Shown here piece after piece: positions 25,968 to 42,485 of a stretch of DNA of 64,000 bases (its first letter is position 1; each line of letters starts with the position of its first letter). Position numbers and translations under genes: made by a program. Under the pieces are notes generated by a model that was not told the DNA's origin, ran no database searches, and saw only the letters and a program-made list of their open reading frames with translations. Source of the DNA: Proteus terrae (lineage in GTDB: Bacteria > Pseudomonadota > Gammaproteobacteria > Enterobacterales > Enterobacteriaceae); assembly GCF_003144325.1 (NCBI RefSeq), contig NZ_PENS01000002.1:62001-126000 (forward strand), read 5' to 3'.

Positions 25968-27728
25968 TTATTGCGCTGCACTAGGTGCAATGATTTGTTG
26001 GCCATTTTCAGGTGTATCATCAATAGCACAACCAAACTCAACTTCTTTAATTAGCATATCTGCCATTGCAGTTGCAGTTTGATCTTCATCGATAATGACG
26101 TGATTTGCCCCTTTCTCAAGGATAAAAGAAGCTTCTTCATCGTAGTTAGCGCGCACGATAATATCGTCAAAATGAGCACGAACAATGATATTTAAATCAG
26201 GGTTCATACTTCTTGCTGTTTCCGCGATATCGGCTGCTTCATAACCATTAGGTATCGTCAGTAATAAAGATTTAGCACAATCAATTCGGGCTAAAGCAAG
26301 AGACTCTTTAGTTGATGCATTACCCAGTACTGTGTTTAAGCTTTTCTCTTTTAATTCAGCGAATTTATTACGGCTATTTTCGATAATAACTAATGGAATA
26401 GATTGAGCTAATAATTTCTCCGAAAGCATGCTTCCTGCACGTCCATAACCGACGATAATGGCGTGGCCACAAATATCAACAGGGACTGGCATCTCTTCTT
26501 CAAGCTCTTCTTGTTGTAGTTGCTCCACTTCTTCTTTGGTCTCTGTTTTTGCCAGATAACGGTCTAATAAAGAGAACAATACAGGGTTTAGCATAATAGA
26601 GACTAAAGCACCGGCTAAAACAAGGTTGCGCGCATCGGGTTCTAAAACGTTCAGTGCCACACCAAGACCAGCAAGAATAAAGGCAAACTCACCAATTTGA
26701 GCAAGGCTGGCTGAAATGGTTAAGGCAGTGCGTCTGGAATGTCCAAACATTCGCACAAGGACCAATGCCGCGGCTGATTTACCAATAATAATGATAGCCA
26801 GTGTCGCTAAGATACCTAGTGGATGCTCAATTAATACCATTGGATCAAATAGCATACCGACAGAAACAAAGAACAGTACAGCAAAAGCATCACGCAGCGG
26901 TAAAGTATCTTGAGCCGCTCTGTGGCTTAACTCAGACTCATTAAGAACCATACCGGCAAAGAATGCGCCTAATGCGAAGGAAGCATCAAATAAGGTTACA
27001 GCGCCATAAGCGATACCTAAAGCAAGAGCGAGTACACTCAGTGTAAATAGCTCACGAGAGCCCGTTGCCGCGGTTTTAGCTAAAATCCAAGGAATAAGTT
27101 TACGACCAACAACCATCATGATTAAGATAAAGGCAACAACTTTACCGATTGTAATACCTAAATTGATCATGAGTTCAGAAATACTGGTTTGATCGCTACT
27201 TTCCAGCATATTGGCAACAGCGGGAAGTAGTACAAGGGCTAACACCATGGCTAAGTCTTCAACAATCAACCAACCAATAGCAATTTGACCTCGTTGGCTA
27301 TCAATCAAGCCTCTTTCTTCAAGTGCTCGTAAAAGCACAACGGTACTTGCTGTTGATAGACACAAGCCGAATACTATGCCACTAAATAAACCCCAGCCAA
27401 AAAATGCCGATAATCCCAGTCCTAATAATGTTGCGACTGCAATTTGAGCAATAGCACCTGGAATAGCGATGGCTTTTACCGCCATCAGATCTTTTAACGA
27501 AAAGTGTAAACCCACGCCAAACATTAGCAGAATAACGCCAATTTCAGCGAGTTCAGGAGCGAGAGAGGTATCAGCAACAAAGCCGGGAGTAAATGGACCA
27601 GCGAGTACACCCGCAGCAAGATATCCTACTAAAGGTGAGATTTTTAGCCGTTGAGCGATCATGCCTAAAATATAAGCAAGTGCTAATCCACCAACAATGG
27701 TGGTAATGAGGGGTGTTGAATGCGGCAT
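25968..27728 (-). CDS. ybaL: YbaL-type monovalent cation:proton antiporter (CPA2) with RCK domain
   Basis: A 586-residue protein. The N-terminal two thirds form a CPA2/KefBC-type antiporter with about twelve membrane segments (GYLAAGVLAGPFTPGF, GQIAIGWLIVEDLAMV, FALGAFFAGMVLNESE). After an acidic linker a TrkA-N/RCK nucleotide-binding domain follows (HAIIVGYGRAGSMLSEKLL near residue 423). It probably exchanges potassium or sodium for protons under control of NAD(H) or another ligand. The start at 27728 (ATG) is preferred over the TTG one codon earlier; AAGGAG lies five to eight bases upstream. Order with gsk and fsr is as in E. coli. Confidence 0.92.
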   Translation of the reverse strand: MPHSTPLITTIVGGLALAYILGMIAQRLKISPLVGYLAAGVLAGPFTPGFVADTSLAPELAEIGVILLMFGVGLHFSLKDLMAVKAIAIPGAIAQIAVATLLGLGLSAFFGWGLFSGIVFGLCLSTASTVVLLRALEERGLIDSQRGQIAIGWLIVEDLAMVLALVLLPAVANMLESSDQTSISELMINLGITIGKVVAFILIMMVVGRKLIPWILAKTAATGSRELFTLSVLALALGIAYGAVTLFDASFALGAFFAGMVLNESELSHRAAQDTLPLRDAFAVLFFVSVGMLFDPMVLIEHPLGILATLAIIIIGKSAAALVLVRMFGHSRRTALTISASLAQIGEFAFILAGLGVALNVLEPDARNLVLAGALVSIMLNPVLFSLLDRYLAKTETKEEVEQLQQEELEEEMPVPVDICGHAIIVGYGRAGSMLSEKLLAQSIPLVIIENSRNKFAELKEKSLNTVLGNASTKESLALARIDCAKSLLLTIPNGYEAADIAETARSMNPDLNIIVRAHFDDIIVRANYDEEASFILEKGANHVIIDEDQTATAMADMLIKEVEFGCAIDDTPENGQQIIAPSAAQ

Positions 27729-27965
27729 CAATTCTCCTTCTTTTTATAAAACTACATGTATCGGGGGGCGAGTATATAGCAGGCTGATAGTTTAACGTAT
27801 TCATGCAATAAATTCGCTAAAAATTATTGATTATTTATAAAAATAGCAAGTTGATTGAGTTTTTTGATGCAAATGCATTTTTTTATGTTATTTTAATCAA
27901 TCTTACCTTTTAAAGTAAGAATTACCCTGTTACTGGTTCATTTAGATAACAGGGATAATTACAAG

Positions 27966-29204
27966 TTACTCGGTTTTATCTACCCCAATGTTAGGGAGAA
28001 GAATGGTGAAAATGCCTAATAGTGGTAAATAAGCACAAATATGATAAACATATTCAATACTCTTCTGATCTGCAATATAGCCTAAGACAGCGGCACCAAT
28101 ACCTCCCATCCCAAAAGCAAGCCCGAAGAAAAGCCCTGAAACCATGCCTGTTTTACCCGGTATTAACTCTTGAGCATAAACTAAGATAGCAGAAAATGCT
28201 GAAGCTAAAATCACACCAATGAATACAGTAAGTACGCCAGTCCAGTACAAGCTGGCATAAGGGAGTATCAGTGTAAAAGGTGCAACTCCTAGAATAGATC
28301 CCCAAATAACGTATTTTCTGCCAATTTTATCGCCTACAGGGCCACCAATCATGGTGCCAGCAGCAACAGCAAAGAGAAAAACAAATAGGTGAATTTGTGC
28401 ATTTTGTACTGAAACGCCAAATTTATGTATTAAATAGAAAGTATAGTAGCTACTGATGCTTGCAAGATAAAAATACTTAGAAAAAATCAGAATAAGTAAA
28501 ATGGCTAAAGAGCCCAAAAGGGTTTTACGTGGCAATACGGCTTTGTTATTTAGTGCTTTAGGTTTTTTTTTCTGAGCTTCTTGTTGAATTTTATACCAAC
28601 GGCTAACTTGTAATAGCACTACAATAGCCAATAAAGCAGCAAGGGAGAACCAACCGACATTTCCTTTGCCATAAGGCGCAATCAATAAAGCCGCCAAAAG
28701 AGGGCCTAAAGAGCTACCTAAATTACCCCCGACTTGAAAGAGTGATTGTGCAAGTCCGTGTCTTCCTCCTGATGCCATTCTAGCAACACGAGATGATTCA
28801 GGATGGAAAACAGACGAGCCAGTACCAACTAATCCCGCAGCAAGTAATAACATTGGGAATGTATCTGCAAAGGCGAGGAGAATAAGCCCTGTCAGCGTAA
28901 AACCCATACCAATAGGTAATGAGTAAGGCTTAGGATATTTATCAGTATAGAGGCCAATAAAAGGCTGTAATAAAGATGCTGTAATTTGATAGGTCAACGT
29001 TATCATCCCTATTTGCACAAAACTGAGTGAAAACTCTGATTGCAACATAGGGTAAATAGCTAATATCAATGATTGGATCATATCATTGAGAAGATGCGAA
29101 AAACTGATAGCAGTTAAAATACTAAAAACGGTATTACGCTTATTGGCTTTTCGTTGTAAAACATCGGTTTCTTCTATGGGAAGCGTTGGATCGGCATTGC
29201 TCAT
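27966..29204 (-). CDS. fsr: Fosmidomycin-resistance-type MFS efflux protein
   Basis: A 412-residue MFS transporter with about twelve membrane segments. The N-terminal half carries SFSHLLNDMIQSLILAIYP and GSSVFHPESSRVARMASGG, characteristic of the Fsr family, and the second half has GGPVGDKIGRKYVI. E. coli Fsr exports fosmidomycin when overexpressed; the natural substrate is not known. AGGGA precedes the ATG by about six bases. It lies between ybaL and ushA, as in E. coli, and diverges from ushA across 261 bp that hold both promoters. Confidence 0.92.
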   Translation of the reverse strand: MSNADPTLPIEETDVLQRKANKRNTVFSILTAISFSHLLNDMIQSLILAIYPMLQSEFSLSFVQIGMITLTYQITASLLQPFIGLYTDKYPKPYSLPIGMGFTLTGLILLAFADTFPMLLLAAGLVGTGSSVFHPESSRVARMASGGRHGLAQSLFQVGGNLGSSLGPLLAALLIAPYGKGNVGWFSLAALLAIVVLLQVSRWYKIQQEAQKKKPKALNNKAVLPRKTLLGSLAILLILIFSKYFYLASISSYYTFYLIHKFGVSVQNAQIHLFVFLFAVAAGTMIGGPVGDKIGRKYVIWGSILGVAPFTLILPYASLYWTGVLTVFIGVILASAFSAILVYAQELIPGKTGMVSGLFFGLAFGMGGIGAAVLGYIADQKSIEYVYHICAYLPLLGIFTILLPNIGVDKTE

Positions 29205-29465
29205 TTTAGTTCCCTGTCACATTATTTTGTTAATAAATTGTTTCTATTTTTATTGGTCTAGTTTACATCTATTTAGAGTTGAGTGCTTTTGTGAGAAATA
29301 GAGTTTGATTCATGTCTCAAAAAAACTATCGGATCAATGAAATAATAAAAAAATTATATAACCTACGTCATAAAATACAGCAAAAGTATTTAACTTCTGT
29401 CTTCTTTTTCTACAGTAGAACCATGGCAGAACCTTCTCAATAAATAATATACATGGGGATATACC

Positions 29466-31130
29466 ATGAGCTTATCTTTTAAATTATCAGCATGCGCATT
29501 AACAGTTTCTTTAGCGATGGCGCCTGCGATGTCTCAGGCATGGGAAAAGGATAAAACCTACGAAATTACTATTTTGCATACCAATGATCACCATGGCCAT
29601 TTCTGGCATAACGATCGTGGCGAATATGGTTTAGCGGCACAAAAAACGGTTGTTGATGACATTCGTAATGAAGTGGCTAAAAAAGGCGGTAGCGTACTGC
29701 TGTTATCTGGCGGCGATATTAATACTGGTGTACCAGAATCTGATTTACAAGATGCAGAGCCTGATTTTAAAGGTATGAATCTTGTAGGTTACGATGCAAT
29801 GGCACTGGGTAACCATGAATTCGACAATCCATTAGATGTTTTACGCCAACAAGAGAAATGGGCAACATTCCCATTCTTATCTGCAAATATTTATCAAAAA
29901 AGTACGGGTGAGCGTTTATTCAAGCCTTACACCATTTTTGATAAGCAAGGTGTCAAAATTGCAGTATTAGGTTTAACAACGGATGATACCGTACGTATTG
30001 GTAACCCAGCGAACTTTCCTGATACCGAATTCCGCAAACCTTCTGATGAAGCTAAAAAAGTGGTAGAAGAGCTGCGTACAACGGAAAAGCCAGACATTAT
30101 TATTGCAGCAACTCATATGGGTCACTACGATGATGGTAATCACGGTTCTAACGCACCTGGCGATGTAGAAATGGCGCGAGCCTTACCAAAAGGCTACCTT
30201 GATATGATTGTGGGTGGTCACTCACAAGATCCAGTTTGTATGTCTCAAGAGAACAAAAACTACAAACAAGCTGATTATGTGCCAGGAACACCTTGTGCAC
30301 CAGATAACCAAAATGGTACATGGATTGTTCAGGCTCATGAATGGGGTAAATATGTTGGTCGTGCAGACTTCGAATTCCGTAATGGTGAATTCACGTTAAA
30401 ACATTACCAATTAATCCCAATCAACTTAAATCAAAAAGTGAAGAAAGACGACGGTACAACTGAGCTTGTTTACTATACAAAAGAAATTCCTCATAACCCT
30501 GAAATGATGAAACTGCTGACGCCTTACCAAGAAAAAGGTGGCGAGCAATTGAATGTTAAAGTGGGTGAGGTTGTTGGTAAATTAGAGGGTGATCGTAGTA
30601 AAGTTCGCTTTGTTCAAACCAATATGGCACGCCTATTATTATCAGCTCAAGCTGAACGTGCAAATGCAGACTTTGCCATTATGAGTGGTGGTGGTGTCCG
30701 TGATTCTATTGAATCTGGTGATATTACTTATAAAGATGTACTGAAAGTACAACCATTTGCGAACGAACTGGTTTATGTTGATTTTAAAGGTGAAGAAGTC
30801 GAGCCTTATCTGTCAGCTGTCGCATGTATGAAAGTAGACTCTGGTGCTTACGCACAATTCTACAATGTTAGCTTAACTGTAGATGCAGACTGCAAAGTTA
30901 GCGATGTTAAAATTGCTGGTAAACCATTAGATAAAACTAAGACTTACCGCATGGCGACATTAAACTTTAACGGTATTGGTGGTGATGGTTATCCTAAGAT
31001 TGATGTTCATCCTGCATATGTAAATACTGGTTTTGTTGATGCTGAAGTATTAAAAGGTTATATCGAAGCACACTCTCCATTGAAAGCTGCTGATTTCGAA
31101 CCTAAAGGTGAGATCGTTTATAAAAAATAA
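29466..31130 (+). CDS. ushA: Periplasmic UDP-sugar hydrolase/5'-nucleotidase
   Basis: A 554-residue periplasmic enzyme with a signal peptide cleaved near residue 25 (MSQA/WEKD). The metallophosphoesterase domain shows HTNDHHGHFW, SGGDINTG, ALGNHEFDNP and the later VGGHSQD, giving the two-metal site; the C-terminal substrate-binding domain has the NFNGIGGDGYP segment. It removes phosphate from nucleotides and splits UDP-sugars outside the inner membrane. The ATG follows ATGGGGATATACC. Position beside fsr and ybaK matches E. coli. A perfect hairpin terminator follows. Confidence 0.96.
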   Translation: MSLSFKLSACALTVSLAMAPAMSQAWEKDKTYEITILHTNDHHGHFWHNDRGEYGLAAQKTVVDDIRNEVAKKGGSVLLLSGGDINTGVPESDLQDAEPDFKGMNLVGYDAMALGNHEFDNPLDVLRQQEKWATFPFLSANIYQKSTGERLFKPYTIFDKQGVKIAVLGLTTDDTVRIGNPANFPDTEFRKPSDEAKKVVEELRTTEKPDIIIAATHMGHYDDGNHGSNAPGDVEMARALPKGYLDMIVGGHSQDPVCMSQENKNYKQADYVPGTPCAPDNQNGTWIVQAHEWGKYVGRADFEFRNGEFTLKHYQLIPINLNQKVKKDDGTTELVYYTKEIPHNPEMMKLLTPYQEKGGEQLNVKVGEVVGKLEGDRSKVRFVQTNMARLLLSAQAERANADFAIMSGGGVRDSIESGDITYKDVLKVQPFANELVYVDFKGEEVEPYLSAVACMKVDSGAYAQFYNVSLTVDADCKVSDVKIAGKPLDKTKTYRMATLNFNGIGGDGYPKIDVHPAYVNTGFVDAEVLKGYIEAHSPLKAADFEPKGEIVYKK

Positions 31131-31156
31131 GCTCAGCAAATCATGATGATATAGAT

Positions 31157-31182
31157 AAAAGGCGACATTAATGTCGCCTTTT
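31157..31182. terminator. ushA terminator
   Basis: A 12-bp perfect stem (AAAAGGCGACAT/ATGTCGCCTTTT) with a 2-base centre, followed by ATTTT, 26 bp after the ushA stop. Its symmetry lets it serve ybaK on the other strand too. Confidence 0.9.
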
Positions 31183-31250
31183 ATTTTAGGTCTAAATTAC
31201 GTTAATTTCTTATTTTGAGGATGCGCCTTAAAATAAAAAATCATTAATGA

Positions 31251-31730
31251 TTATGACGCTTTACGAATAAGTGCAAATTGAGCACCTAATACAGAACCTA
31301 AATCTTTTGCTGATAATTCAATATCTAAACCACGTTTGCCACCAGAAACAAAGATAGTGTCAAATTCAAGGGCTTGTTCATCAATTACTGTCGGTAGGCG
31401 TTTTTTCTGACCCAATGGGCTTATTCCACCCACTAAATAACCCGTTACCTTTTGTGCAATCTGTGGATCTGCCATATCTGCTTTTTTTGCCTTAAAGCAC
31501 TTAGCAACGAGTTTTAAATCTAACTGACCAGAAACAGGTGTTACTGCAACAGCAAGATTCTTAGCATCACCATTTAAAGAAACTAACAGTGTTTTGAATA
31601 CTTGGCGATTATCCAAACCTAATTTTTCAACGGCTTCATCACCAAAATTATGGACATTCGCATCATGCTCATAAGGATGAAGGATAAATTTGATTTTTTG
31701 TTTTTCCAGCAAATTTACAGCGGGAGTCAT
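31251..31730 (-). CDS. ybaK: Cys-tRNA(Pro)/Cys-tRNA(Cys) deacylase
   Basis: A 159-residue YbaK-type trans-editing protein that hydrolyses cysteine wrongly attached to tRNA-Pro. The conserved Lys46 in [10 protein letters not shown], the [11 protein letters not shown] segment near residue 63 and [13 protein letters not shown] near 100 are the family hallmarks. Length matches the E. coli protein (159). Cytoplasmic. It lies 34 bp before ybaP on the same strand (ybaP is upstream), so the two may be co-transcribed. Confidence 0.94.
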
Positions 31731-31764
31731 AGCTATTCCTACTTATAAGATTAGAACTATATTT

Positions 31765-32574
31765 TTATTCTTGGTGCGTTAATAAATCGATCAAATTCTC
31801 TTCACCAAATAAATGAAGGGCACCTACAGTCACTACATAACGACCAGCCGGTAATTTTGATAATATACTTACCCATTTTTGGTTACGGCTTTCCATTAAA
31901 ATATCAAATACAGCTTTACTAAAAGTATTCGGTAAAGGTGGCTGTTTCTCTCTACTATTATAATTTAACCACCAATTGATCATGATTTGCAATGTACGCG
32001 CGTTCTCGTGCCAATTTTTTAATGTGTCTTCGAGCAATTGCTGACCATCCTCAGGAAAATTCAATAATAGTGCGACTTGATCCTCAATGCCTTCGAGTTC
32101 AATAATCCTTTTTTTGTATTCATTAGCATGTTGGATAACTTGATAATCAATGCCGTATTGCGGTTGTAATCCAAGTTGGATCGCTTGGGTAGATTGTAAA
32201 ATCAACGCAATTTGCCAAAGAGGCTTATTCTCAAGTTGATAAAGCGAGAGGGAGAGATCTTCACAATGACGTGTCACTTGAGAAAAAAGAGGTGTATTTA
32301 AGCGCGTTTCTAGTGACTCTCTAAAAAGAGATGCTTGCTTAAAAGGTTGAACGTCAGTTGAAATATCAGCTTCAACAATAATAGCATCTGAATTTTTTAT
32401 TTCATTGATAAGCACGTTGGAGAGTGGTGACATTGTAGGAACACCCATATGGATACTACCCACAAGGTGTAAAGAGACATTATTAGGCAACGTAATATCA
32501 ACAGCGGGATAAGGGTAATGGACCGTATTTTTTATTCCTACCCAATGTTTGATTTTCTGAAAAATACCCGTCAT
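31765..32574 (-). CDS. ybaP: TraB/GumN-family protein YbaP
   Basis: A 269-residue protein of the TraB/GumN family, by position and length the counterpart of E. coli YbaP. It shows the family's N-terminal HLVGSIHMG, the middle ESRNQKWVSIL (matching the RN..W motif) and the C-terminal TVGALHLFGEENLI. Relatives are thought to be metal-dependent proteases of the Tiki/EreA-like fold, with the paired GxxH motifs as metal ligands; the cellular role is unknown. The frame is open 30 bp upstream, but 32574 has AGGAG seven bases before it. In E. coli the ChiX RNA lies next to this gene; here it is 1.8 kb away, past an adhesin. Confidence 0.85.
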   Translation of the reverse strand: MTGIFQKIKHWVGIKNTVHYPYPAVDITLPNNVSLHLVGSIHMGVPTMSPLSNVLINEIKNSDAIIVEADISTDVQPFKQASLFRESLETRLNTPLFSQVTRHCEDLSLSLYQLENKPLWQIALILQSTQAIQLGLQPQYGIDYQVIQHANEYKKRIIELEGIEDQVALLLNFPEDGQQLLEDTLKNWHENARTLQIMINWWLNYNSREKQPPLPNTFSKAVFDILMESRNQKWVSILSKLPAGRYVVTVGALHLFGEENLIDLLTHQE

Positions 32575-32683
32575 TGATATGCTCCTTTGAGTATAGAATC
32601 GCAAAGTTTTAGCATAACGGATTTGAACTGGAATGAAACAACGAAAACTAAGCTTTACTTAGCTTTCGCTGTTTTTACGTTAT

Positions 32684-33841
32684 TTACCAGCTTATGCCAA
32701 CACCACCTGCTGAGACCCAATTTGATTCATTCCATGCGGTAGAGGCTCTCACTTTAATATTTTCGTTAATACGGTATTGCATACCCCAAGCAAGCGCTGT
32801 TGCATTACGATAATTACCAATGCCAATAGCAGTACTAAATGTGGCAGAATCAGTAAAAGGTAAATTACTCATTGCGGCTACAGAAGCAATACCTTGATTG
32901 GCACGTTTCTCAACTTTATAAAAGCGGTTTTGAGTATCTGATTTAAAATGTTCAAAATTAGTTTTTAGATCTTTAAATTCATTTCTTGCTACTGATTGCT
33001 CAATATAAAGAGTAGAAAAATGATTTTTTAATGAAAGATTACTCCCATTAATATTTAGATTATCAATATATTTTTCTTTAATATTATCAATACCTTTTTT
33101 GTTGGTTTCGATATTTTCTTTATTAGCTTTGATATCGCTCGAGTTGGTGTTTATTTTGTTTCTATTGCTGGTAATATTATCTTTGTTAATGTCAATGTCA
33201 GTTTTGTTGGTAATAATGTCATTTTTATTAGTGGCAATATTGTTTTTATTGATGCTGATATTGCTTTTGTTAGTGTCGATTTGGGTTTTATTGTTTTCAA
33301 TATTACTTTGAATAGTATTATTTTTAGTCTCTATTCTATTTTTGTTATCATTGATTTCATTTGCATGTTGATCTAGTTTAGCTATTGTATGATGTATTTT
33401 TTCATTTAATTCATTATCAGTTTTTTGTCTTTCTCGATTGTCTTCGGTTCTTTTTTTCTCAACATTTGCAAACTTTTCTATGACACTCTCTTCTAGTTTG
33501 AAAATTATTTCTTTTGAATGAGGTGGAACTTTCATTCCTCTTTCTATATTTGCATTTAGCTCACTAAGTTTCGAGCTTGGTTGGTAATGTCTTTGGATTT
33601 CAATAGGTTTTTTAATGATGTCATCTATTTTATTTTTATTAAAAGAAATCGTTTCTTTTAATCCGGAATATATATTTTCTTTTTGTTCTGAAAAGTTAGA
33701 AAGATAATTCAATATCGCTGTTTTAAAATCAGGTGGTATACTATCTAACTTTAGTGAGTTATTACCTCTTTGGTTATCTGTGATGAGAACTTTCTCTATA
33801 TTTATATTTGTATTTTCTTGAGATACGTTTTTTTTATTTCT
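32684..33841 (-). CDS. Stalk and membrane anchor of trimeric autotransporter adhesin (YadA type)
   Basis: The open frame encodes about 385 residues, without an ATG at its beginning; the first possible initiator, TTG at 33712, lacks a ribosome site. From that TTG, residues 120-210 are a strict seven-residue coiled-coil repeat (IxxNKxD/N), and residues 268-342 are a YadA-type C-terminal anchor (GIASVAAMSNLPF to VSAGGVGISW), ending in Trp as outer-membrane beta-barrels do. Three chains would form one 12-strand pore that displays the stalk. Proteus trimeric adhesins AipA and TaaP are plausible relatives, not verified. Secretion requires the signal peptide in the other frame. Confidence 0.75.
   Translation of the reverse strand, partial: RNKKNVSQENTNINIEKVLITDNQRGNNSLKLDSIPPDFKTAILNYLSNFSEQKENIYSGLKETISFNKNKIDDIIKKPIEIQRHYQPSSKLSELNANIERGMKVPPHSKEIIFKLEESVIEKFANVEKKRTEDNRERQKTDNELNEKIHHTIAKLDQHANEINDNKNRIETKNNTIQSNIENNKTQIDTNKSNISINKNNIATNKNDIITNKTDIDINKDNITSNRNKINTNSSDIKANKENIETNKKGIDNIKEKYIDNLNINGSNLSLKNHFSTLYIEQSVARNEFKDLKTNFEHFKSDTQNRFYKVEKRANQGIASVAAMSNLPFTDSATFSTAIGIGNYRNATALAWGMQYRINENIKVRASTAWNESNWVSAGGVGISW
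33083..33355 (-). repeat. Imperfect 21-bp repeats encoding the adhesin coiled coil
   Basis: About twelve tandem units of 21 bp encode seven-residue repeats with Asn-Lys at fixed places (NKxxIxxNKxxI). The near-identical DNA units should allow the stalk to gain or lose repeats by recombination. The AT-rich pattern also produces an open but meaningless frame on the opposite strand. Confidence 0.75.
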
Positions 33842-34152
33842 TCATTCATCATCTTTATTATTTCATCTGTGATTTTGATGACTTCAATATGTTTTTTTGA
33901 AGATGCTTCGACATCATGATAGATATATATATCACTTACAAATTCATCAAAAATAGGTCTGGTAATGTCATTTTTCATGGGATGTGAGTTTAGATATGTA
34001 GAATTAGAATCGGTGTTGTTAGGGTGACTATTTGCAAGATGGCTGTTTTCAAGTAAAATAATGTTTTTATCGGTTGTTGTTTCTGAAACAGAAAAAGCAT
34101 TTATAGAATAAATTAAAGATAAGCAAAATAGGGTGGTGTTTTTTAATTTCAT
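33802..34152 (-). CDS. N-terminal part of trimeric autotransporter adhesin, with signal peptide
   Basis: A 116-residue product starting MKLKNTTLFCLSLIYSINAFS, a Sec signal peptide cleaved about residue 19-21. The exported part is rich in Asn, Ser and His (SHLANSHPNNTDSNS) and ends in a helical stretch, ITDEIIKMMNEEIKK. The ATG follows AAAAGGAATTAATC, a ribosome site AAGGA eight bases away. The stop comes eight codons after an A8 tract; shifting by one base there continues into the stalk-anchor frame. On its own it would be a small secreted or periplasmic peptide of unknown use. I read it as the head of the adhesin. Confidence 0.7.
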   Translation of the reverse strand: MKLKNTTLFCLSLIYSINAFSVSETTTDKNIILLENSHLANSHPNNTDSNSTYLNSHPMKNDITRPIFDEFVSDIYIYHDVEASSKKHIEVIKITDEIIKMMNEEIKKTYLKKIQI

Positions 34153-34321
34153 GATTAATTCCTTTTGATATATATTCCTTTGTTACTTTTTAATTTTAAA
34201 TTCAGAAAAACACACTGGCAATAATAATATCTTTTAAAATATTTTTATGGCTATTTTATATAAATATTTAATTTTATATATGAATAATAAAGTTAATGAA
34301 AAAATTATAATATATTGCTAT

Positions 34322-34408
34322 TCTAGCGCTAAGAGGGCGGAGTGATGACTCTCTTGTATAATGAGAAATTCCTCTTTGACTGGCCGATAGTAATATCGGC
34401 TTTTTTTT
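34322..34408 (+). ncRNA. chiX: ChiX (MicM/SroB) small RNA
   Basis: The segment GAAATTCCTCTTTGAC at 34365-34380 is identical to the antisense core of E. coli ChiX as I remember it, followed as there by a short GC stem (GCCGATA/TATCGGC, loop GTAA) and nine T forming the Rho-independent end. A TATAAT box at 34306-34311 fits a start near 34320; the 5' end is approximate. ChiX binds Hfq and represses chitoporin (chiP) and related mRNAs until decoyed by chitobiose-operon RNA. E. coli chiX also lies beside ybaP. Confidence 0.85.
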
Positions 34409-34465
34409 TAACCTTTTGATAAAGTTAAAAATCATTAAATAAGAAGTCAAAAATAAGATAATAAA

Positions 34466-34497
34466 AAACCTCTTTAACTAATAAGCAAAAGAGGTTT
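34466..34497 (-). terminator. copA terminator
   Basis: A 10-bp perfect stem (AAACCTCTTT/AAAGAGGTTT) with a 12-base loop; on the minus strand it is followed by TTT and lies 30 bp after the copA stop codon. It separates copA from the convergent chiX. Confidence 0.85.
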
Positions 34498-34526
34498 CAG
34501 GGAAATGCTTAATATATTATTAAGTA

Positions 34527-37469
34527 TTATTGCTTGGGTTTGAATCGTAACAAGCGATTCGCATTACTCACAACGGTAATTGAAGACAATGCCATTGCTG
34601 CACCTGCAACAACTGGATTTAACAGTGTGCCGGTGAAGGGATAGAGAACGCCCGCTGCAATAGGAATACCTAAGCTATTATAGACAAAGGCACCAAAAAG
34701 GTTTTGTTTCATATTACGTAGTGTACCTTTTGAAATTTCAACAGCATCAGCAACACCATGTAAACTGTGACGCATCAACGTGATTGCTGCTGTTTCAATG
34801 GCAATATCACTACCACCTCCCATTGCAATACCGACATCCGCTTTGGCTAATGCTGGGGCATCGTTAATACCATCTCCAACCATTGCAACACGACGTCCTT
34901 CAGCTTGAAGCTCAGTAATCGCTTGAGCTTTACCTTCTGGCATCACTCCCGCAATAACCTGATCAATACCCGCTTCTTTTGCAATTGCATTGGCAGTAAT
35001 TGGATTATCTCCCGTTAACATCACGAGTCGATAACCTTGATTATGTAAACGCTGTAATGCACTTACGGTATCATCTCTAAGAGGATCACGAATAGAAAGT
35101 AATGCCGCAATTTTGCCATCTAGTGCTAATAAAACCGGTGTAACACCTTTAGCTGCTTGTGTATCAATCAGAGAATTAACTTCATTAATATTAACACCTG
35201 ATTCGAGCATCAATTTAGGGTTACCTAAAAGTACTGTTTTACCCTTGATTTCACCACTTAATCCCATACCAGCTAATGTACGGAAATTATTTACTTCTGG
35301 TAAATCAATACCTTCAGCGCGCGTTAAAATGGCTTTAGCTAATGGGTGATTAGAACCATTTTCCAGTGATGCCGCCAATGCAAGTGCTTGAGTGTCATCT
35401 ACTTGATTGAAAGTATGAATTTCAGTGACCTGAGGCATACCTTCTGTCAGTGTTCCTGTTTTATCAAAGACTAAAGTATCTAGATTACTGGCTTGTTGTA
35501 GTGCATCTGCATCACGAACTAACACACCATATTCAGCAGCACGACCGACACCCGAAATAATGGACATAGGCGTCGCTAGACCTAAAGCACAAGGGCAAGC
35601 GATGATAAGAACAGTTGTGATAATCACAAGTGCATAGGTAATTTGTGGAGAAGGGCCAAAGAAATACCAAATAGCTCCTGCAACAAGCGCAATAGCGACA
35701 ACGACAGGTACAAATACACCCGAGATTTTATCCGCTAATTGACCTATTTCAGGTTTACTGCTTTGCGCTTGACGAACTAATTTAATAATACGAGCCAGTG
35801 TTGTTTTACTTCCCACTGCTGCAGCTTTAAAAAGAACAGAGCCATCTTGGACGGTTGTTCCGGCATGAATAGTGTCACCTACTGTTTTTTGCTGTGGAAT
35901 TGGCTCGCCTGTTAGCATAGCCTCATCCATCCACACTTCACCTTGGATAATTTCACCATCAACGGGTACTTTATCACCTGTTGCTAAACGTAAAGTCATT
36001 CCTTGTTTAACATCAGCCAATGGCATTTCGACTTCACCGTTTTCAGTTATCACTCTTGCTGTTGGTGGAGTTAAATCTAATAGTCGTTCTAGCGCTTTAG
36101 ATGAACGCTGGCGCGCTCTTTGCTCAAGCATATGTCCCAGATTGATTAACCCGATAATCATCGCACTAGCTTCATAATAGAGATGTCGAGCTTGAGCCGG
36201 GAACACTTCTGGCCATAGGTTTACGGTAATGGAATAGAGCCAGGCTGTTCCTGTTCCTAATGCAACGAGAGTATCCATTGTTGCACTGCGGTTTTTTAAA
36301 CTCTGCCATGCGCTACGATAGAAATGACCACCAGCAACAACCATAACAAACAGTGTCGCAATACCAATACCTAACCAGATGCTGTGATTGGCCTCTGTTA
36401 GCATCATATTATCGCCGATCATTCCCCAAATCATGACAGGAATACCAACCGCTAAGGCCAACGCAGCTTGCCAGCGAAAACGCTTCATATTAGCAACAGC
36501 AACTTCTTGCTGACGTTCTCTGCGTTTTACATCGTCTTGAATAATTTCAGCGCCATAACCTGCTTTTTCAATGGCAGTCACAAGTGCATCATGGTCGATG
36601 TCACCCGTTACTAATGCACTACGTTCAGCTAGATTCACTCGCACATTTTCAACGCCATCAACGGATTGTAATGCTTTATGAACCTTGTTTACGCAACTCG
36701 CACAAGTCATACCATCAATTAAAAGCTGAACACTGTCGTCATCGTTAGTATCGATTTCAACGTTATTATCAATATCAGCATTCTCAACTGGAATATCACA
36801 AACAGCCGCTGACGATGCTTCCAGTTGTGCATGCGTTTGCGTCAGCGGCTCAGTTTTTGGGAAATCAGTACCAGCTAGTTGAGCTTCAAAACCCGCTTCT
36901 GTAATAGCGGTAATTAAGGTTTCAGCGGTTGCAGAACCAGTCACTTTAGCATGTGTTAATTCAACTTCAGCTGTTTCAACACCCGCAGTATTTTCTAGTG
37001 CTTTTTTAACTGAACCGACACAGTGACCACAATTTAAGCCCGATAGAGTTAAGTGAATTATGTTATCAGCAGGCGCTAAACTTGCTTGAAAACCTTCAGC
37101 CGTAATCGCTGAAATTAAAGTATCCGCATCTGCGTCACCAAAGATTTCAGCTGACTCTTTTGTTACATTAACGGCTGCAACACCTTCAACAGCTAATAAT
37201 GCTTTTTCAGTTTTACCAACACACTTCATGCAGTTAAGTCCGCTTAGGCTTAATTTTACATCAGGTTGTGTTGCAACACTTGCTTCATATCCTGCATCTT
37301 CAATTGTTTTGATTAAGCTTTCAGCAGTTGCATCGCTGTCAATTTTAGCGTATTGAATAGTCACAATTGCCTGCTCTATGTCATTGCGAGCATCAAGTGC
37401 TTTTTTTACACTGTTGACACAGTGAGAGCATGAAAGTCCTTTCAATGAGAGTATTATAGTTTTTGCCAT
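34527..37469 (-). CDS. copA: Copper(I)-exporting P1B-type ATPase with four N-terminal metal-binding domains
   Basis: A 980-residue P1B ATPase exporting Cu(I) (and Ag(I)) from cytoplasm to periplasm. Catalytic features are complete: the CPC metal motif in [13 protein letters not shown], phosphorylation site [15 protein letters not shown], the SNHPLA motif and [14 protein letters not shown]. coli CopA has two N-terminal HMA domains (834 residues); this one has four, with CxxC pairs at C14/C17, C80/C83, C147/C150 and C256/C259, explaining the extra length. The frame is open 123 bp upstream but would run through the promoter; 37469 follows GGAG by nine bases. It diverges from cueR with a CueR operator between. 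Confidence 0.95.
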
Positions 37470-37561
37470 GTTAATTATCTCCGTCATAAAAGCGTTACCT
37501 CTATTATTGCGCAATATTCGGTAACTTGCTTTCTTTAAAGGTTTTTTCTTATCAGAGATAA

Positions 37562-37592
37562 AGGCTAAACCTTTCCGCAAGGGGAAGGTCAA
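37562..37592 (-). promoter_or_regulatory. CueR-controlled copA promoter
   Basis: Read on the minus strand: -35 TTGACC (37592-37587), a 19-bp spacer and -10 TAGCCT (37567-37562). The stretched spacer is diagnostic for MerR-family activation. The palindrome ACCTTTCCGC/AAGGGGAAGGT at 37569-37589 is the CueR site and is nearly the same as the E. coli copA operator. Confidence 0.92.
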
Positions 37593-37601
37593 GGGGGAAT
37601 T

Positions 37602-38015
37602 TTGAATATTAGTGAAATCGCAAGTAAAACAGGATTAACGGCTAAAGCTATTCGGTTTTATGAAGAAAAAGACTTGATAACACCACCAGAAAGAGGTGAA
37701 AACGGCTATCGTTATTATCAGGCTCAACATATTGAAGAATTAACTTTATTGCGCCAAGCAAGAGAAGTTGGCTTTAGTTTAGAAGAGTGCCGAGCTTTAT
37801 TAATGTTGCTAAGAAATCCTTCTCGTCATAGTTCAGACGTGAAAGAAGCCACCTTAAAAAAAGTGGCTGAAATTGAGAAAACAATTAATGAGCTTAATGC
37901 CATTCGCCAGCGATTACTTTTGTTGGCCAGCGAATGTCCCGGTGATGACGGAGCAGATTGCCCGATCATCAATCATTTGTCGGGGGGATGTCATCACCAG
38001 AAACAGCCGGTTTAA
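37602..38015 (+). CDS. cueR: Copper-responsive MerR-family activator CueR
   Basis: A 137-residue MerR-family regulator: N-terminal helix-turn-helix [26 protein letters not shown], a dimerisation helix, and the Cu(I)-binding loop with C112 and C120 ([10 protein letters not shown]), plus a C-terminal GGCHHQ tail. The start codon is TTG, ten bases after the copA -35 element, preceded by AGGGGG at optimal distance; alignment with E. coli CueR begins at exactly this residue. It activates copA by untwisting the 19-bp spacer promoter. Its 3' end overlaps the convergent nfeD-like gene by 47 bp. Confidence 0.95.
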
Positions 38016-38457
38016 GTGCAATCACTCGTAAGGTAATACCATCAATCTCGGTTACTGTTACCTTATCGCCTGCAAGTAATGGCGTGTCTGAATAAACACG
38101 CCAACTACCATCAGCTAATTTAACGCGACTAAAACCGTTTTCCGTATCTGATAATAAAACAGCATGAACACCAATTAGTTGATGACTTTTCTGATTTAAG
38201 TTCTCGGCTTCTTTTGATTGTTTTCTGCGTTTAAGCCAAAGGTGCCAAAAAATAGCACTAATAACTGTTAATATCGCAAATAAAACACCTTGAATAGGCC
38301 AGCTAATAGGCAATATCCATGTGATCAACGATACACATAGAGCAGCCATTCCTGACCATAAAAGGTATCCTGCTGTTCCTAACATTTCTGTAATTAACAG
38401 CAAACCACCAAGACAAAGCCAGAAAAGTGCAGGTTGAGCACTAATCCATTCAATCAT
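37969..38457 (-). CDS. ybbJ: NfeD-like membrane protein (YbbJ)
   Basis: A 162-residue protein with two to three N-terminal membrane segments ([15 protein letters not shown], then a hydrophobic stretch to about residue 70) and a C-terminal OB-fold of the NfeD family (about 95-150). NfeD proteins partner SPFH/stomatin-like membrane proteins and probably adjust microdomain assembly or proteolysis. It starts 2 bp after the qmcA stop, and the same pair is adjacent in E. coli. The last 47 bp overlap the end of cueR on the other strand. Confidence 0.9.
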
Positions 38458-38459
38458 AA

Positions 38460-39383
38460 TTAATTGCTCTTGTTGCCTGAGTCACTTTTTTTGGTATTGA
38501 GTAATTCAGAAATACCGCCAATAGCACCCATAAGATTACTTGCTTCTAGTGGCATCATAATAACTTTACTGTTATTAGCTGAACCAATTTGAGACAGCGC
38601 ATCAGTATATTTTTGAGCAACAAAGTAGTTAATTGCTTGCATATCACCTTTTGCGATGGCCTCAGATACCATTTGTGTTGCCTTAGCTTCAGCTTCTGCT
38701 GCACGTTCACGGGCTTCTGCTTGTAAGAATGCAGATTGACGCTCACCTTCAGCCTTCAGAATTTGCCCTTGTTTCTCACCTTCAGCTTTCAAGATAGCAG
38801 CTTGACGAATACCTTCAGCTTCAAGAATGTCGGCACGTTTAGTTCGCTCAGCTTTCATCTGCGCATTCATTGCAGAAATCAATTCTTTTGGTGGGCGGAC
38901 ATCACGAATTTCGATACGGGTAATTTTGATACCCCAAGGGTTTGTTGCATCATCGACAATCAGTAACAGGCGACTATTGATTTGGTCACGCTGAGAAAGA
39001 ATTTCATCAAGCTCCATTGAACCTAACACTGTACGAATATTAGTGAGTGTTAAATTAATAATGGCAAGCTCAAGATTATTGACTTCATAAGCAGCTTTTA
39101 CAGGGTCGATCACTTGAATAAAGCAGACGGCATCGATGCTGACGTTGGCGTTATCACGAGAAATGACTTCTTGAGAAGGAATATCAAGCACTTGCTCCAT
39201 CATGTTGATACGGCGCCCAATACGATCGACAAAAGGTATAAGGATTTGAAGACCAGGGGCTAGAGTACGAGTGTAACGACCAAAACGTTCGACAGTCCAC
39301 TGATAACCCTGTGGAACGGTTTTAACACCACATAAAACTAAAATAATAGCGAATAAGATGATAATACCAATGCCTATTTCCAT
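38460..39383 (-). CDS. qmcA: SPFH/stomatin-like membrane protein QmcA
   Basis: A 307-residue protein with one N-terminal membrane anchor ([16 protein letters not shown]), an SPFH/PHB domain (about 25-190; [19 protein letters not shown]) and a long helical region with [20 protein letters not shown]-type repeats around residues 200-245 that forms a coiled-coil oligomer. QmcA is an inner-membrane microdomain protein linked to quality control with FtsH/HflKC. It is followed after 2 bp by its NfeD-type partner gene. The ATG is preceded by GGACAGGTAT. Confidence 0.93.
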
Positions 39384-39420
39384 ATACCTGTCCTAAATCT
39401 GCTCTAATAAGAAAATAAAA

Positions 39421-40278
39421 TTAATAAAGTAAAGAATACACCATGCGACGATATTTAGACGCCAAATTATCATTAGTACCTAATGCTGATAAAATATCCA
39501 TCAGGGTTTTCTTAACTTGTCCGTCACCTGCATTTAGATCTTTTTTGATAAAGCTAAATAGCAATTCTAACGCTTCTTCATTACGAGCAACTTCATGTAA
39601 TTTTAGTGCAAGCTGAATAGCAAGATCGGTATTTTCAGGCTGTTGATTAAAATCGTTTTGTAACTGTTGAATTTCAGGCGTATCAGCAGCCTGTTTTTGT
39701 AATTCAATTTGCGCTAACAAACTGTGGTAGTAACTATCTTGATCTTGTAATGGGATAGTCATTAACAAGGTTTGAGCTTCTTCATTTTTATTTAAAGAAA
39801 TTAAAGCACCTGCTAGCGCAAGCGTAATTTCACTATTTTTAGGTGCGAGTTGATGCGCTTCTTTTAGCAGAGGTAAAGCATCTTCTGCTTTTCCTTCAGA
39901 AAGTAATTGTGCGGCTTGTGCCGCTTTCAACTCTTCTGGTTTAGGTAATACATTGGCTAAAACTTGGCGAATTGCTTCTTCAGGTTGAGGGCCTTGGAAA
40001 CCATCAACTGGGCGACCTTCTTGCAATATATAAACTGTTGGAATAGCACGTAGACCAAACTGTGAGGCAATCATTTGTTCAACATCACAATCCAATTTTG
40101 CCAAAATAAATTGATCAGCAAATTCGGCTGCCAGTTTATCTAATGTTGCGCCAAGCTCTGCACAATGAGGGCTACGTTCTGAATAGAAGTACATCATGAC
40201 CGGTTTCGTCATGGATTGTTCTATAATTTGTTGAATATTTGATTCATTTACATCAACAATATGTGCAGTTGCTAACAT
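39421..40278 (-). CDS. cnoX: Chaperedoxin CnoX (YbbN)
   Basis: A 285-residue protein with an N-terminal thioredoxin fold (about 1-110) and C-terminal TPR-like helices (about 115-285). The thioredoxin active site reads SERSPHC: only the second cysteine of CxxC remains, as in E. coli YbbN (SQHC). CnoX is a holdase that protects substrates from oxidation during hypochlorite stress and hands them to GroEL or DnaK. It lies between qmcA and ybbO as in E. coli, without the fetAB genes. Cytoplasmic. Confidence 0.92.
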
Positions 40279-40362
40279 TAGCTTGTCCCTTTTTGAGAGT
40301 TTTAAATATAGATGCGATTTATAAAGCTATTTTATTAATAAGTAAGGGTGGATACTGAAAAA

Positions 40363-41148
40363 TCAAGCCTTGCCACTTTGGCGACTGAGAATTGTATCCA
40401 TTAAAATATCAGGTAGAAAGCGCTTTAGTATTCTGACAGCGTAAGTTAATAAGGTTACGGGATAACGTATCTTAGGTTTTGGGCTTTCTAAAGCATGAAT
40501 GAGCTTTTTCACGACATCTTCAGGCGTTAATGTGAAACGACTGGCAATCCCCGGATTTTTTACAGGTTTATCTTTTTCAGCTTGAGCGACATTCTCAGTG
40601 AAACAAGTTCGTATTGGGCCTGGCTCTATTAAACTCACCTTAACTCCAGTATGCGCTATTTCCATTCTTAGCGCATCAGACCATGCTTCTACAGCATATT
40701 TACTGGCTGCATAAGCACCTCGACCTGGCGTTGAGATAATCCCCATTACAGAACTCGTTTGAATAATACGTCCTTCTCCATGAGGTAACATTGCAGGTAG
40801 AAGTAATGTAGTAAGCTGATGTAAACCAAAAAAGTTAGTCGAAAACTGTTTTTCCATTTGTTGGCGAGTAATGGCATCTAATGGGCCATAAACACCAAAT
40901 CCGCCATTATTAAATAATCCATATAAACGACCGTTTGTCAGGCGAATAACTTCTAGTGCTGCATTTTTAACACTTTTTGGATCATCAAGGTCAAGATGAA
41001 TAGGTTCTAATCCCAGTGTTTCCATGCGTTCAAGGTCTTCACCTTTACGGCAAGCAGCAAGAACTCGATAGCCTCTTTTCTGTAGTGCTTTTGCTGCACA
41101 GAGTCCTATTCCACTGGAACTTCCTGTAATCAATACCGTTTTTTGCAT
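40363..41148 (-). CDS. ybbO: Short-chain dehydrogenase YbbO
   Basis: A 261-residue classical SDR: the cofactor motif TGSSSGIGLCAAKAL near residues 7-21, NNGGFG near 80 in place of NNAG, a catalytic Ser in QTSSVMG near 130 and YAASK near 145. It would be an NADP(H)-dependent oxidoreductase; E. coli YbbO acts on aldehydes and some ketosteroid-like compounds in vitro, but its role is not settled. It lies 50 bp downstream of tesA on the same strand, so co-transcription with the thioesterase is likely, hinting at lipid or fatty-aldehyde metabolism. Confidence 0.9.
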   Translation of the reverse strand: MQKTVLITGSSSGIGLCAAKALQKRGYRVLAACRKGEDLERMETLGLEPIHLDLDDPKSVKNAALEVIRLTNGRLYGLFNNGGFGVYGPLDAITRQQMEKQFSTNFFGLHQLTTLLLPAMLPHGEGRIIQTSSVMGIISTPGRGAYAASKYAVEAWSDALRMEIAHTGVKVSLIEPGPIRTCFTENVAQAEKDKPVKNPGIASRFTLTPEDVVKKLIHALESPKPKIRYPVTLLTYAVRILKRFLPDILMDTILSRQSGKA

Positions 41149-41198
41149 AATTTTACAATTAATCTCGTTTAATCTACGTCAACTACTGTCAGAATAGT

Positions 41199-41828
41199 CT
41201 AACGTGTTAGGTAAGGGGATAATGTTTCATCCATCCACTGCGTAATAAAAGGCTGAGCATCTTCATTGGGGTGTATGCTGTCATTTTGCATCCACTCAGG
41301 CTTATCAGCGATTTTCTCCATATAAAAAGGAAGCAGAGGAAGCGCATTATCTTCAGCGAGTTTTGGATAGATAGCTGAAAATGATTGTGTATAACGTTTA
41401 CCGTAATTAGGTGAAATCATTATTTGCATAAAAAGTGGCGTTGCACCGGCATCTTTCACTTGTGTAATGATGTTTTGTAATGCCTCTTTTGTTTGTGCAA
41501 CAGGGTATCCCTGTAAACCATCATTTGCACCTAATTCAATTAAAACCCAGCGTGGTTGATGCTGTTTTAATAAATCAGGAAGCCTATTTTGTCCCTGAAA
41601 GGCTGTTTCACCACTAATGCTTGCATTAACAACATTAATTTCAGGGTAGGTTGTTTTCCATTTATCAGCAAGGCGTTGTGGCCATGCGTTTTCAATCGGA
41701 AGACGGTATCCTGCACTCAAGCTGTCACCAAAGATCAAAAAGGTATCAGCAGCAATTGCCTTAAAGCTAAACATCATCATAACGATAAGGAAAAATGTAT
41801 GTCGACGGAAAAGGTTCTTGAAGTTCAT
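41199..41828 (-). CDS. tesA: Acyl-CoA thioesterase I/lysophospholipase L1 TesA
   Basis: A 209-residue periplasmic SGNH hydrolase. The signal peptide ends about residue 26 (KAIA/ADTF). The four blocks are visible: GDSLSAGY (nucleophile Ser36, Ser10 of the mature form), ASISGET, LGANDGLQG and DSIHPN with the catalytic Asp/His. It hydrolyses acyl-CoA, lysophospholipids and esters. Its start lies 30 bp inside the divergent ybbA coding region, so the two genes overlap head to head and share regulatory DNA; its ribosome site is weak. The arrangement is the same type as in E. coli. Confidence 0.94.
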   Translation of the reverse strand: MNFKNLFRRHTFFLIVMMMFSFKAIAADTFLIFGDSLSAGYRLPIENAWPQRLADKWKTTYPEINVVNASISGETAFQGQNRLPDLLKQHQPRWVLIELGANDGLQGYPVAQTKEALQNIITQVKDAGATPLFMQIMISPNYGKRYTQSFSAIYPKLAEDNALPLLPFYMEKIADKPEWMQNDSIHPNEDAQPFITQWMDETLSPYLTR

Positions 41829-42485
41829 CAGTTAACCAAACAAGTAGGACAAGGTGATAGTCAGATCTCTATATTGCAGGGTGTTGAGTTAGTTGTCGAG
41901 CCTGCACAAACAATTGCGTTAATTGGTGAGTCAGGATCGGGTAAATCGACCCTGTTAGGGATCATTGCTGGATTAGATGATGGCACCTCTGGCAGTGTAC
42001 ATTTGATGGGGGAAGATCTCACAAAAATGAATGAAGAAGAGCGTGCCAAGTTGCGTGCTGAACATGTTGGTTTTGTTTTTCAATCATTTATGTTGATCCC
42101 AACATTGAATGCACTTGAAAATGTGCAGTTGCCCGCATTATTAAAAGGTGAGTCAGAAAAGCACAGCCATGCGCGTGCAGTTGATTTACTTAAGCTGTTA
42201 GGGTTAGGTGAACGTTTATACCATATGCCAGCACAGCTTTCTGGCGGTGAGCAACAGCGCGTTGCATTAGCAAGAGCATTTTGCACTCAACCTGCCATTC
42301 TTTTTGCGGATGAACCAACAGGGAACCTTGATCGTAAAACTGGCGATAAAATTGCTGACTTGTTGTTCTCTCTTAACCGAGATTATGCAACAACCTTGAT
42401 TTTAGTGACTCATGACAATGAGCTAGCTGCTCGTTGTCAAAGACGATTACGATTAGTTGATGGACAACTTAAGGAGGAGTCATGA
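41799..42485 (+). CDS. ybbA: ABC transporter ATP-binding protein YbbA
   Basis: A 228-residue ABC ATPase of the LolD/MacB type. Walker A GESGSGKST is near residue 43, the Q-loop FVFQSFMLIPTLNA, signature LSGGEQQRVALARAF near 145 and Walker B ILFADEPTGNLD follow. It pairs with the YbbP permease, whose start codon overlaps its stop codon (ATGA). The system has a MacB/LolCDE-like mechanotransmission type of permease and may move lipids or modified proteins; the substrate is unknown. The start at 41799 has AAGG eight bases upstream; a longer frame to 41589 runs antisense through tesA and is rejected. Confidence 0.93.
   Translation: MSTEKVLEVHQLTKQVGQGDSQISILQGVELVVEPAQTIALIGESGSGKSTLLGIIAGLDDGTSGSVHLMGEDLTKMNEEERAKLRAEHVGFVFQSFMLIPTLNALENVQLPALLKGESEKHSHARAVDLLKLLGLGERLYHMPAQLSGGEQQRVALARAFCTQPAILFADEPTGNLDRKTGDKIADLLFSLNRDYATTLILVTHDNELAARCQRRLRLVDGQLKEES

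What the first reader, a model, noticed from the sequence alone, without database searches (positions are those of the whole stretch)
32684..34152. Trimeric autotransporter adhesin split exactly at an A8 tract: likely phase-variable or slippage-expressed
The frame carrying the signal peptide (34152-33802) and the frame carrying stalk and YadA anchor (open from 33841) overlap around eight coding-strand adenines at 33828-33835. One added adenine, or one -1 slip on the heptamer A-AAA-AAA, joins them into about 489 residues. Directly seen: the 39 codons between the tract and the TTG at 33712 are stop-free in the second frame and have no ATG or ribosome site, so that frame makes sense only as a continuation of the first. 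Homopolymer switching of surface adhesins is well known in host-associated bacteria; this locus would be an A-tract example with both halves intact.
Basis: partly seen in the sequence, partly recalled or inferred. Interest (0 to 1): 0.82.

Follow-up and report, generated by a model that had tools for sequence, protein, structure and literature searches.

The report
Adhesin gene split at adenine tract
A surface-adhesin gene that is intact in the related Proteus genomes examined is broken in this genome at a run of eight adenines, most likely by an ordinary copying slip; it could be a reversible on/off switch, but nothing here shows that.

Summary
Two overlapping minus-strand frames (34152-33802, signal peptide; 33712-32684, stalk and YadA anchor) meet at eight adenines, 33835-33828. 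They are parts of one gene: the search matched 18 of 19 other genomes of the genus, and 18 of those 18 carry an uninterrupted trimeric autotransporter adhesin (TAA, 396-516 aa) at the same place. The split is private to this genome and derived.

The switch reading is only partly supported. The tract is not found beyond the sister genome, and long A runs in the 18 intact alleles match codon-shuffle expectation (18 seen, 15.5 expected). In favour, coding A runs of 8 or more are depleted to 0.34 of expectation in the two contigs surveyed but not here, and another TAA in genome G017 is also split at an A8 tract. A general homopolymer fault is unlikely: 1 of 137 coding A/T runs of 7 or more breaks a gene in this assembly. 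A one-off error is not excluded.

Best reading: a recent slippage mutation at an incidental tract, giving a leaky null; precedent, badE of Bartonella.

The parts
33802..34152 (-). 5' half: signal peptide and start of passenger, 116 aa, last residues out of the ancestral frame
   Evidence: 95% identical over residues 1-110 to G003 and 57% over 1-111 to G007, whose frames are open for 499 and 492 codons
33828..33835 (-). run of eight coding-strand adenines where the frame is broken
   Evidence: alignment with G003 and G007; a coding length difference from G003
32684..33827 (-). 3' half in the other frame: stalk (Asn/Lys/Ile-rich repeats) and YadA anchor; first ATG/GTG/TTG is TTG 33712
   Evidence: PF03895 E 8.1e-11 for the ORF from 33712; no stop in the 379 codons examined
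34193..34221 (-). promoter-like site (10 of 12) upstream of the gene
   Evidence: consensus match only, 18 sites found in the region against a mean of 12.2 in shuffles
34527..37592 (-). upstream neighbour, copper-type P-ATPase; marks the locus
   Evidence: name recalled from the sequence, no family search run
31765..32604 (-). downstream neighbour, TraB/GumN-like protein; marks the locus
   Evidence: name recalled, no family search run

Best explanation
A TAA gene kept across the genus was broken recently in this lineage by replication slippage at a poly-A tract. The tract arises from adjacent lysine codons in an AT-rich coiled-coil gene. In this state the cell makes a short exported fragment without an anchor. 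The 3' half has no plausible start and no signal peptide, so adhesin display should be off apart from a small leak by RNA polymerase or ribosome slippage on the same tract. Shown: one ancestral gene, private split, tract at the break, no further decay. Inferred: slippage as the cause, loss of display, the leak.
For: 18 of 18 other alleles found (of 19 other genomes searched) are single-frame at the same place. G003 is 99% identical across the gene and the pieces compared carry no further stops. Noncoding A/T runs of 7 or more differ in length between the two genomes in 31 of 136 cases, so such tracts slip at this divergence. A gene in the other genome is broken in the same manner: G003 has a split AAA-domain gene at a T tract. 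At least four split TAA genes were seen among 66 anchor hits in 20 genomes, two of them at A8 tracts. mutS and mutL have full open frames, so no mutator needs to be invoked.
Against: No reads were available, so a single assembly error is not excluded. Long A runs are less depleted in this gene than in the ORFs surveyed, which is also what a tolerated switch would show. Only one other genome shares the tract, so strain-level on/off variation could not be sampled.
Confidence: 0.6

Rival explanations
1. A contingency locus: the tract changes length often and reversibly, so that part of the population displays the adhesin and part does not.
For: Coding A runs of 8 or more are depleted to 0.34 (G000) and 0.36 (G003) of codon-shuffle expectation in the ORFs surveyed, but stand at 18 against 15.5 here and, summed by me over three TAA loci, at 43 against 41.9. 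A TAA of G017 is split at another A8 tract. Bartonella badE is a precedent, and the same paper's table lists an A8-9 tract (virB9) with on and off states, so A8 is not too short (PMC11466379).
Against: The tract is absent from the aligned position of 17 of 18 intact alleles. All 18 are in frame although 14 carry at least one A run of 8 or more. At the third TAA locus an A8 tract at the same gene position in 9 of 16 alleles is never off. Against other AT-rich ORFs the excess is weak (P 0.012, or 0.072 counting aligned tracts once).
Confidence: 0.2
2. A one-off sequencing or assembly error at the homopolymer; the gene is really intact.
For: The genome is a draft of 38 contigs. In the longest coding class only 2 runs exist and this is the one that differs.
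Against: Over about 545 kb aligned to G003, 3 of 137 coding A/T runs of 7 or more differ, and of these three only this one breaks a gene in the window's genome; the 95% interval for 1 of 137 is 0.02-4%. This does not clear a single site.
Confidence: 0.16
3. Expression by design through slippage: the split is kept and a set ratio of short and full-length protein is made, as for tssM of Citrobacter rodentium.
For: An A-AAA-AAA heptamer in phase. Indels in an 8A repeat of M.HaeIII were bypassed at basal expression (PMC3812077).
Against: None of 18 relatives has the split. No fold near the tract beyond chance (z -0.8, -1.2, -0.2). E. coli RNA polymerase showed no detectable slippage on fewer than eight As and barely any rescue on poly(A) (PMC6260861). 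tssM uses 11 As (PMC4256274).
Confidence: 0.04

Closest known systems
badE trimeric autotransporter of Bartonella krasnovii (PMC11466379; passages and one section read)
   Same: A TAA gene whose frame is lost by length change in a 5' mononucleotide tract, one of them a nine-A tract encoding lysines.
   Different: There the A tract is present in all 18 genomes of the species sequenced in that study and the tract changes rose repeatedly in one host. Here the tract is shared by one relative only and no selection is shown.
tssM1 of Citrobacter rodentium (PMC4256274; passages read)
   Same: A gene interrupted just after a poly-A tract.
   Different: An 11-A tract with 20-25% measured frameshifting and both products needed. 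Here eight As, no conservation of the split, nothing measured.
8A indel bypass in M.HaeIII (PMC3812077; abstract and three sections read)
   Same: Frame-breaking indels in an 8A repeat, the kind that may leak full-length protein.
   Different: A laboratory drift on a plasmid gene in E. coli.
AipA and TaaP, TAAs of Proteus mirabilis (PMC10469602; passages read)
   Same: Same genus and protein class, described there as core in P. mirabilis.
   Different: Orthology of this locus to either was not tested; 'phase variation' and 'homopolymer' have 0 hits in that paper's text.

Membership tests
Trimeric autotransporter adhesin (type Vc) | C-terminal YadA-like anchor | tested here: met
   PF03895 42.3 bits against cut-off 22.7 in the window's 3' ORF; 41.6 bits in the G003 protein
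Trimeric autotransporter adhesin (type Vc) | Signal peptide, passenger and anchor in one frame | tested here: not met
   Split in the window; single frame in 18 of 18 other alleles at the locus. No signal-peptide predictor was run; judged by eye
Trimeric autotransporter adhesin (type Vc) | Trimerises and binds a surface | not testable with these tools
   Needs an experiment
Simple-sequence contingency locus | Repeats commoner than protein and codon use predict | tested here: not met
   A runs of 7, 8, 9 or more: 54, 18, 4 seen; 55.2, 15.7, 5.7 expected
Simple-sequence contingency locus | Repeats commoner than the genome's depleted baseline | tested here: inconclusive
   18 against 5.3 by the baseline of all ORFs surveyed (two contigs), 9.8 by the AT-rich baseline; alleles are related, so P is not strict
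[quoted passage not shown]
   Longest A run at the aligned place is at most 7 in the 17 alleles other than G003; strains of the same species were not available
Simple-sequence contingency locus | On and off states found in a population | not testable with these tools
   No reads or strain sets held
Programmed slippage gene (tssM type) | Split kept in relatives | tested here: not met
   0 of 18 relatives with the locus have the split
Programmed slippage gene (tssM type) | Slippage measured in RNA or protein | not testable with these tools
   Needs an experiment

The most novel reading that the evidence does not exclude
Proteus TAAs form a diffuse contingency system. Slippery A tracts are depleted in most genes but kept at neutral frequency in all three TAA loci examined, at shifting positions, so that frame loss recurs at different tracts in different species. 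The window's gene and the third-locus TAA of G017 would be two independent off states.
Probability: 0.15. Interest if true: 0.55.

Novelty: new member of a known kind. Interest (0 to 1): 0.3.

Why it matters
If switching were real, it would add a simple-repeat switch to the Proteus adhesins. I found none described, within limits: the search pairing Proteus with simple sequence repeats, phase variation and contingency loci returned one paper, on Helicobacter; the one pairing Proteus with TAA, frameshift and pseudogene returned two, on Xanthomonas and E. coli; the 51 papers naming Proteus mirabilis and TAAs (20 listed) were not read through. If it is an ordinary mutation, it still shows that a locus intact across the genus can be lost by one slip and should be annotated as a split TAA, not as two genes.

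Tried and rejected
Plasmid collection: 2 records, both P. mirabilis, matching only the 3' part (18% of the query), no features annotated in the one stretch opened. RNA folding near the tract: three stretches, none beyond shuffles. Mutator hypothesis: mutS and mutL have full open frames. Downstream reinitiation: no start before TTG 33712 and no ribosome site seen by eye. The NPR1_like_C match is below its cut-off and not believed. Structure prediction was not used: the fold class is clear and a monomer model of a trimer would add little.

Papers. Searches with listings only. PMC5574713: passages and one section, not used for a number. PMC6149199: outline and abstract. PMC6260861: outline, abstract and one section.

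Rows dropped or not followed. Searches dropped alignment pieces under 2000 bases. One search lists 41 coding indels on C22 whose length is not a multiple of three; most are clustered or at ORF ends, and they were not each followed. Three of 1514 coding runs of five also differ, at or beside ORF ends. In one search, 3 of 20 third-locus rows (G013, G018, G019) failed my end pattern and were dropped (one search lists each with a 249-codon open frame), and G017 was left out of the intact count. Of the shorter frames I opened three (G013, G011, G017); others, such as the 337-codon one in G016, were not opened, so four split TAAs is a minimum. One search was a wrong call (one-base partner) and gave nothing.

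Full report
What is there. On the minus strand a frame with ATG 34152 behind an AAGGA ribosome site runs to 33802 (116 aa). A second frame is stop-free through to the YadA anchor and ends at 32684; its first ATG/GTG/TTG is TTG 33712. The ORF from 33712 matches PF03895 at 42.3 bits, cut-off 22.7; the 5' half matches no Pfam family at E 1 or better.

The halves are one gene. A DNA search of 20 genomes of the genus (own included) matched 19; one (G010) gave no match. In 18 of 18 other genomes with a match the place holds one uninterrupted TAA, 396 to 516 aa. A copper-type P-ATPase gene lies upstream (in G011 its ORF is truncated) and a TraB-like gene downstream in 17 of 18 (not seen in G012); these two names are recalled. 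G003 is 99% identical over the gene and has a 489-aa protein; G007 has 488 aa. Named loci from the genome collection are Proteus, nine of nine. The split is thus private to the window's genome and derived. In the 484 codons compared in two separate pieces with G003 there are 5 synonymous and 8 nonsynonymous codon differences and no further stop, so the split looks recent.

Is it an error? I aligned about 545 kb (contigs C22 and C34) with G003, at 96.4 and 96.8% identity. Coding A/T runs of 7 or more differ in length in 3 of 137 cases. One is this tract. One breaks a gene in G003, not in the window's genome, an AAA-domain protein. One lies beside a hairpin-like repeat between two ORFs, inside only a mechanically extended ORF start. 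Runs of six differ in 0 of 547 and runs of five in 3 of 1514. Noncoding runs of 7 or more differ in 31 of 136. Errors do not know which bases are coding, so most of the noncoding differences must be real, and these contigs show no general homopolymer fault. At runs of 8 or more the coding sample is only 18, so a single error at this site remains possible.

Is it a switch? I used the two criteria applied to badE of Bartonella (PMC11466379, section read). First, frequency: in the 18 intact alleles A runs of 7, 8 and 9 or more number 54, 18 and 4, against 55.2, 15.7 and 5.7 expected after shuffling synonymous codons (15.5 for 8 or more in the repeat). That is no excess. But in the ORFs of the contigs surveyed (525 kb in G000, 555 kb in G003; not the whole genomes) coding A runs of 8 or more are depleted, 24 against 70.9 and 27 against 75.2; in ORFs under 34% GC, 11 against 17.5 and 12 against 19.4. 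Against those baselines the locus is in excess: P 1.1e-5 with all G000 ORFs, 0.012 with AT-rich ORFs, and 0.072 with AT-rich ORFs when aligned tracts are counted once (15 columns). The alleles are related, so these P values are guides. The second and third TAA loci behave alike: 10 against 8.9 in 20 alleles and 15 against 17.5 in 16 alleles. Many of the third-locus tracts are one shared A8 tract (same gene position in 9 of 16 alleles), in frame in each, so the count there is not independent. Second, conservation: at the aligned place, 17 of 18 alleles have no A run longer than 7, so the tract is confined to this lineage and G003 as far as sampled. No allele of the 18 is off, although 14 carry at least one A run of 8 or more. 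In favour of a switch, the Bartonella paper lists an A8-9 tract with on and off states (virB9, passage), so the length alone does not exclude one.

Recurrence. A genus-wide anchor search listed 66 hits in 20 genomes. I opened three of the short frames there: besides the window's gene, TAAs are split in G013 near six adenines, in G011 with no run over four in the 161 bases viewed, and in G017 within an A8 tract. So TAA frame loss recurs in the genus, with two of the four known cases at A8 tracts; four is a minimum. This fits ordinary hotspot mutation in genes that can be lost and also leaves room for the diffuse-contingency reading. Intact copies of the window's gene and of the G017 gene exist in other genomes.

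Expression. Without slippage the 5' half lacks an anchor and the 3' half lacks a start and signal peptide. The heptamer is in phase, yet no RNA structure beyond chance lies near it. In E. coli, the host RNA polymerase showed no detectable slippage on fewer than eight As (PMC6260861, section read), while indels in an 8A repeat were bypassed in another gene (PMC3812077, section read). A low leak is likely and a set ratio, as in tssM1 with 11 As (PMC4256274, passages), is unlikely.

Verdict. Observation confirmed; split gene real as assembled; switch possible but not shown. Best reading: a recent slippage mutation in an incidental tract. The nearest known case I found is badE. Interest is modest, and would rise if reads showed mixed tract lengths.

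Noticed in passing
L132:2899-3649 (G017, third TAA locus): Another TAA gene is split at a run of eight adenines in a single-contig genome; the other genomes have open frames of 247-286 codons at what looks like the same locus.
   Followed up: partly
L130:2181-3867 (G013) and L131:2119-3133 (G011): Two more TAA genes split into two frames, one near six adenines, one without a long run in the stretch viewed.
   Followed up: partly
L088:3262-6244, minus strand (G005): Two ORFs of the Clostridium_P47 family (PF06597) sit between the P-ATPase gene and the TAA in this genome only, of the 19 with the locus.
   Followed up: partly
L083, L090, L093 (G016, G017, G011): The P-ATPase ORF upstream of the TAA appears split or truncated in 3 of the 16 relatives fetched.
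   Followed up: no
window 32500-42000: Identity to G003 is 98-100% in each 500-base step here and 92-99% at 27500-32500, suggesting a recently exchanged or shared segment that includes the TAA.
   Followed up: no
TAA alleles at the locus in 18 relatives: The anchor region is nearly invariant in the 8 rows aligned, two of them the same gene, while passengers differ strongly; only 4 of 153 allele pairs exceed 70% passenger identity.
   Followed up: partly
L106:15565-16461, minus strand, and its G003 counterpart: An AAA-domain gene whole in the window's genome is split at a T tract (plus strand) in G003.
   Followed up: no
third TAA locus, L139-L156 and L003: An A8 tract at gene position 521 recurs in 9 of 16 intact alleles, in frame in each: a conserved tract that would be the better place to look for switching.
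   Followed up: no
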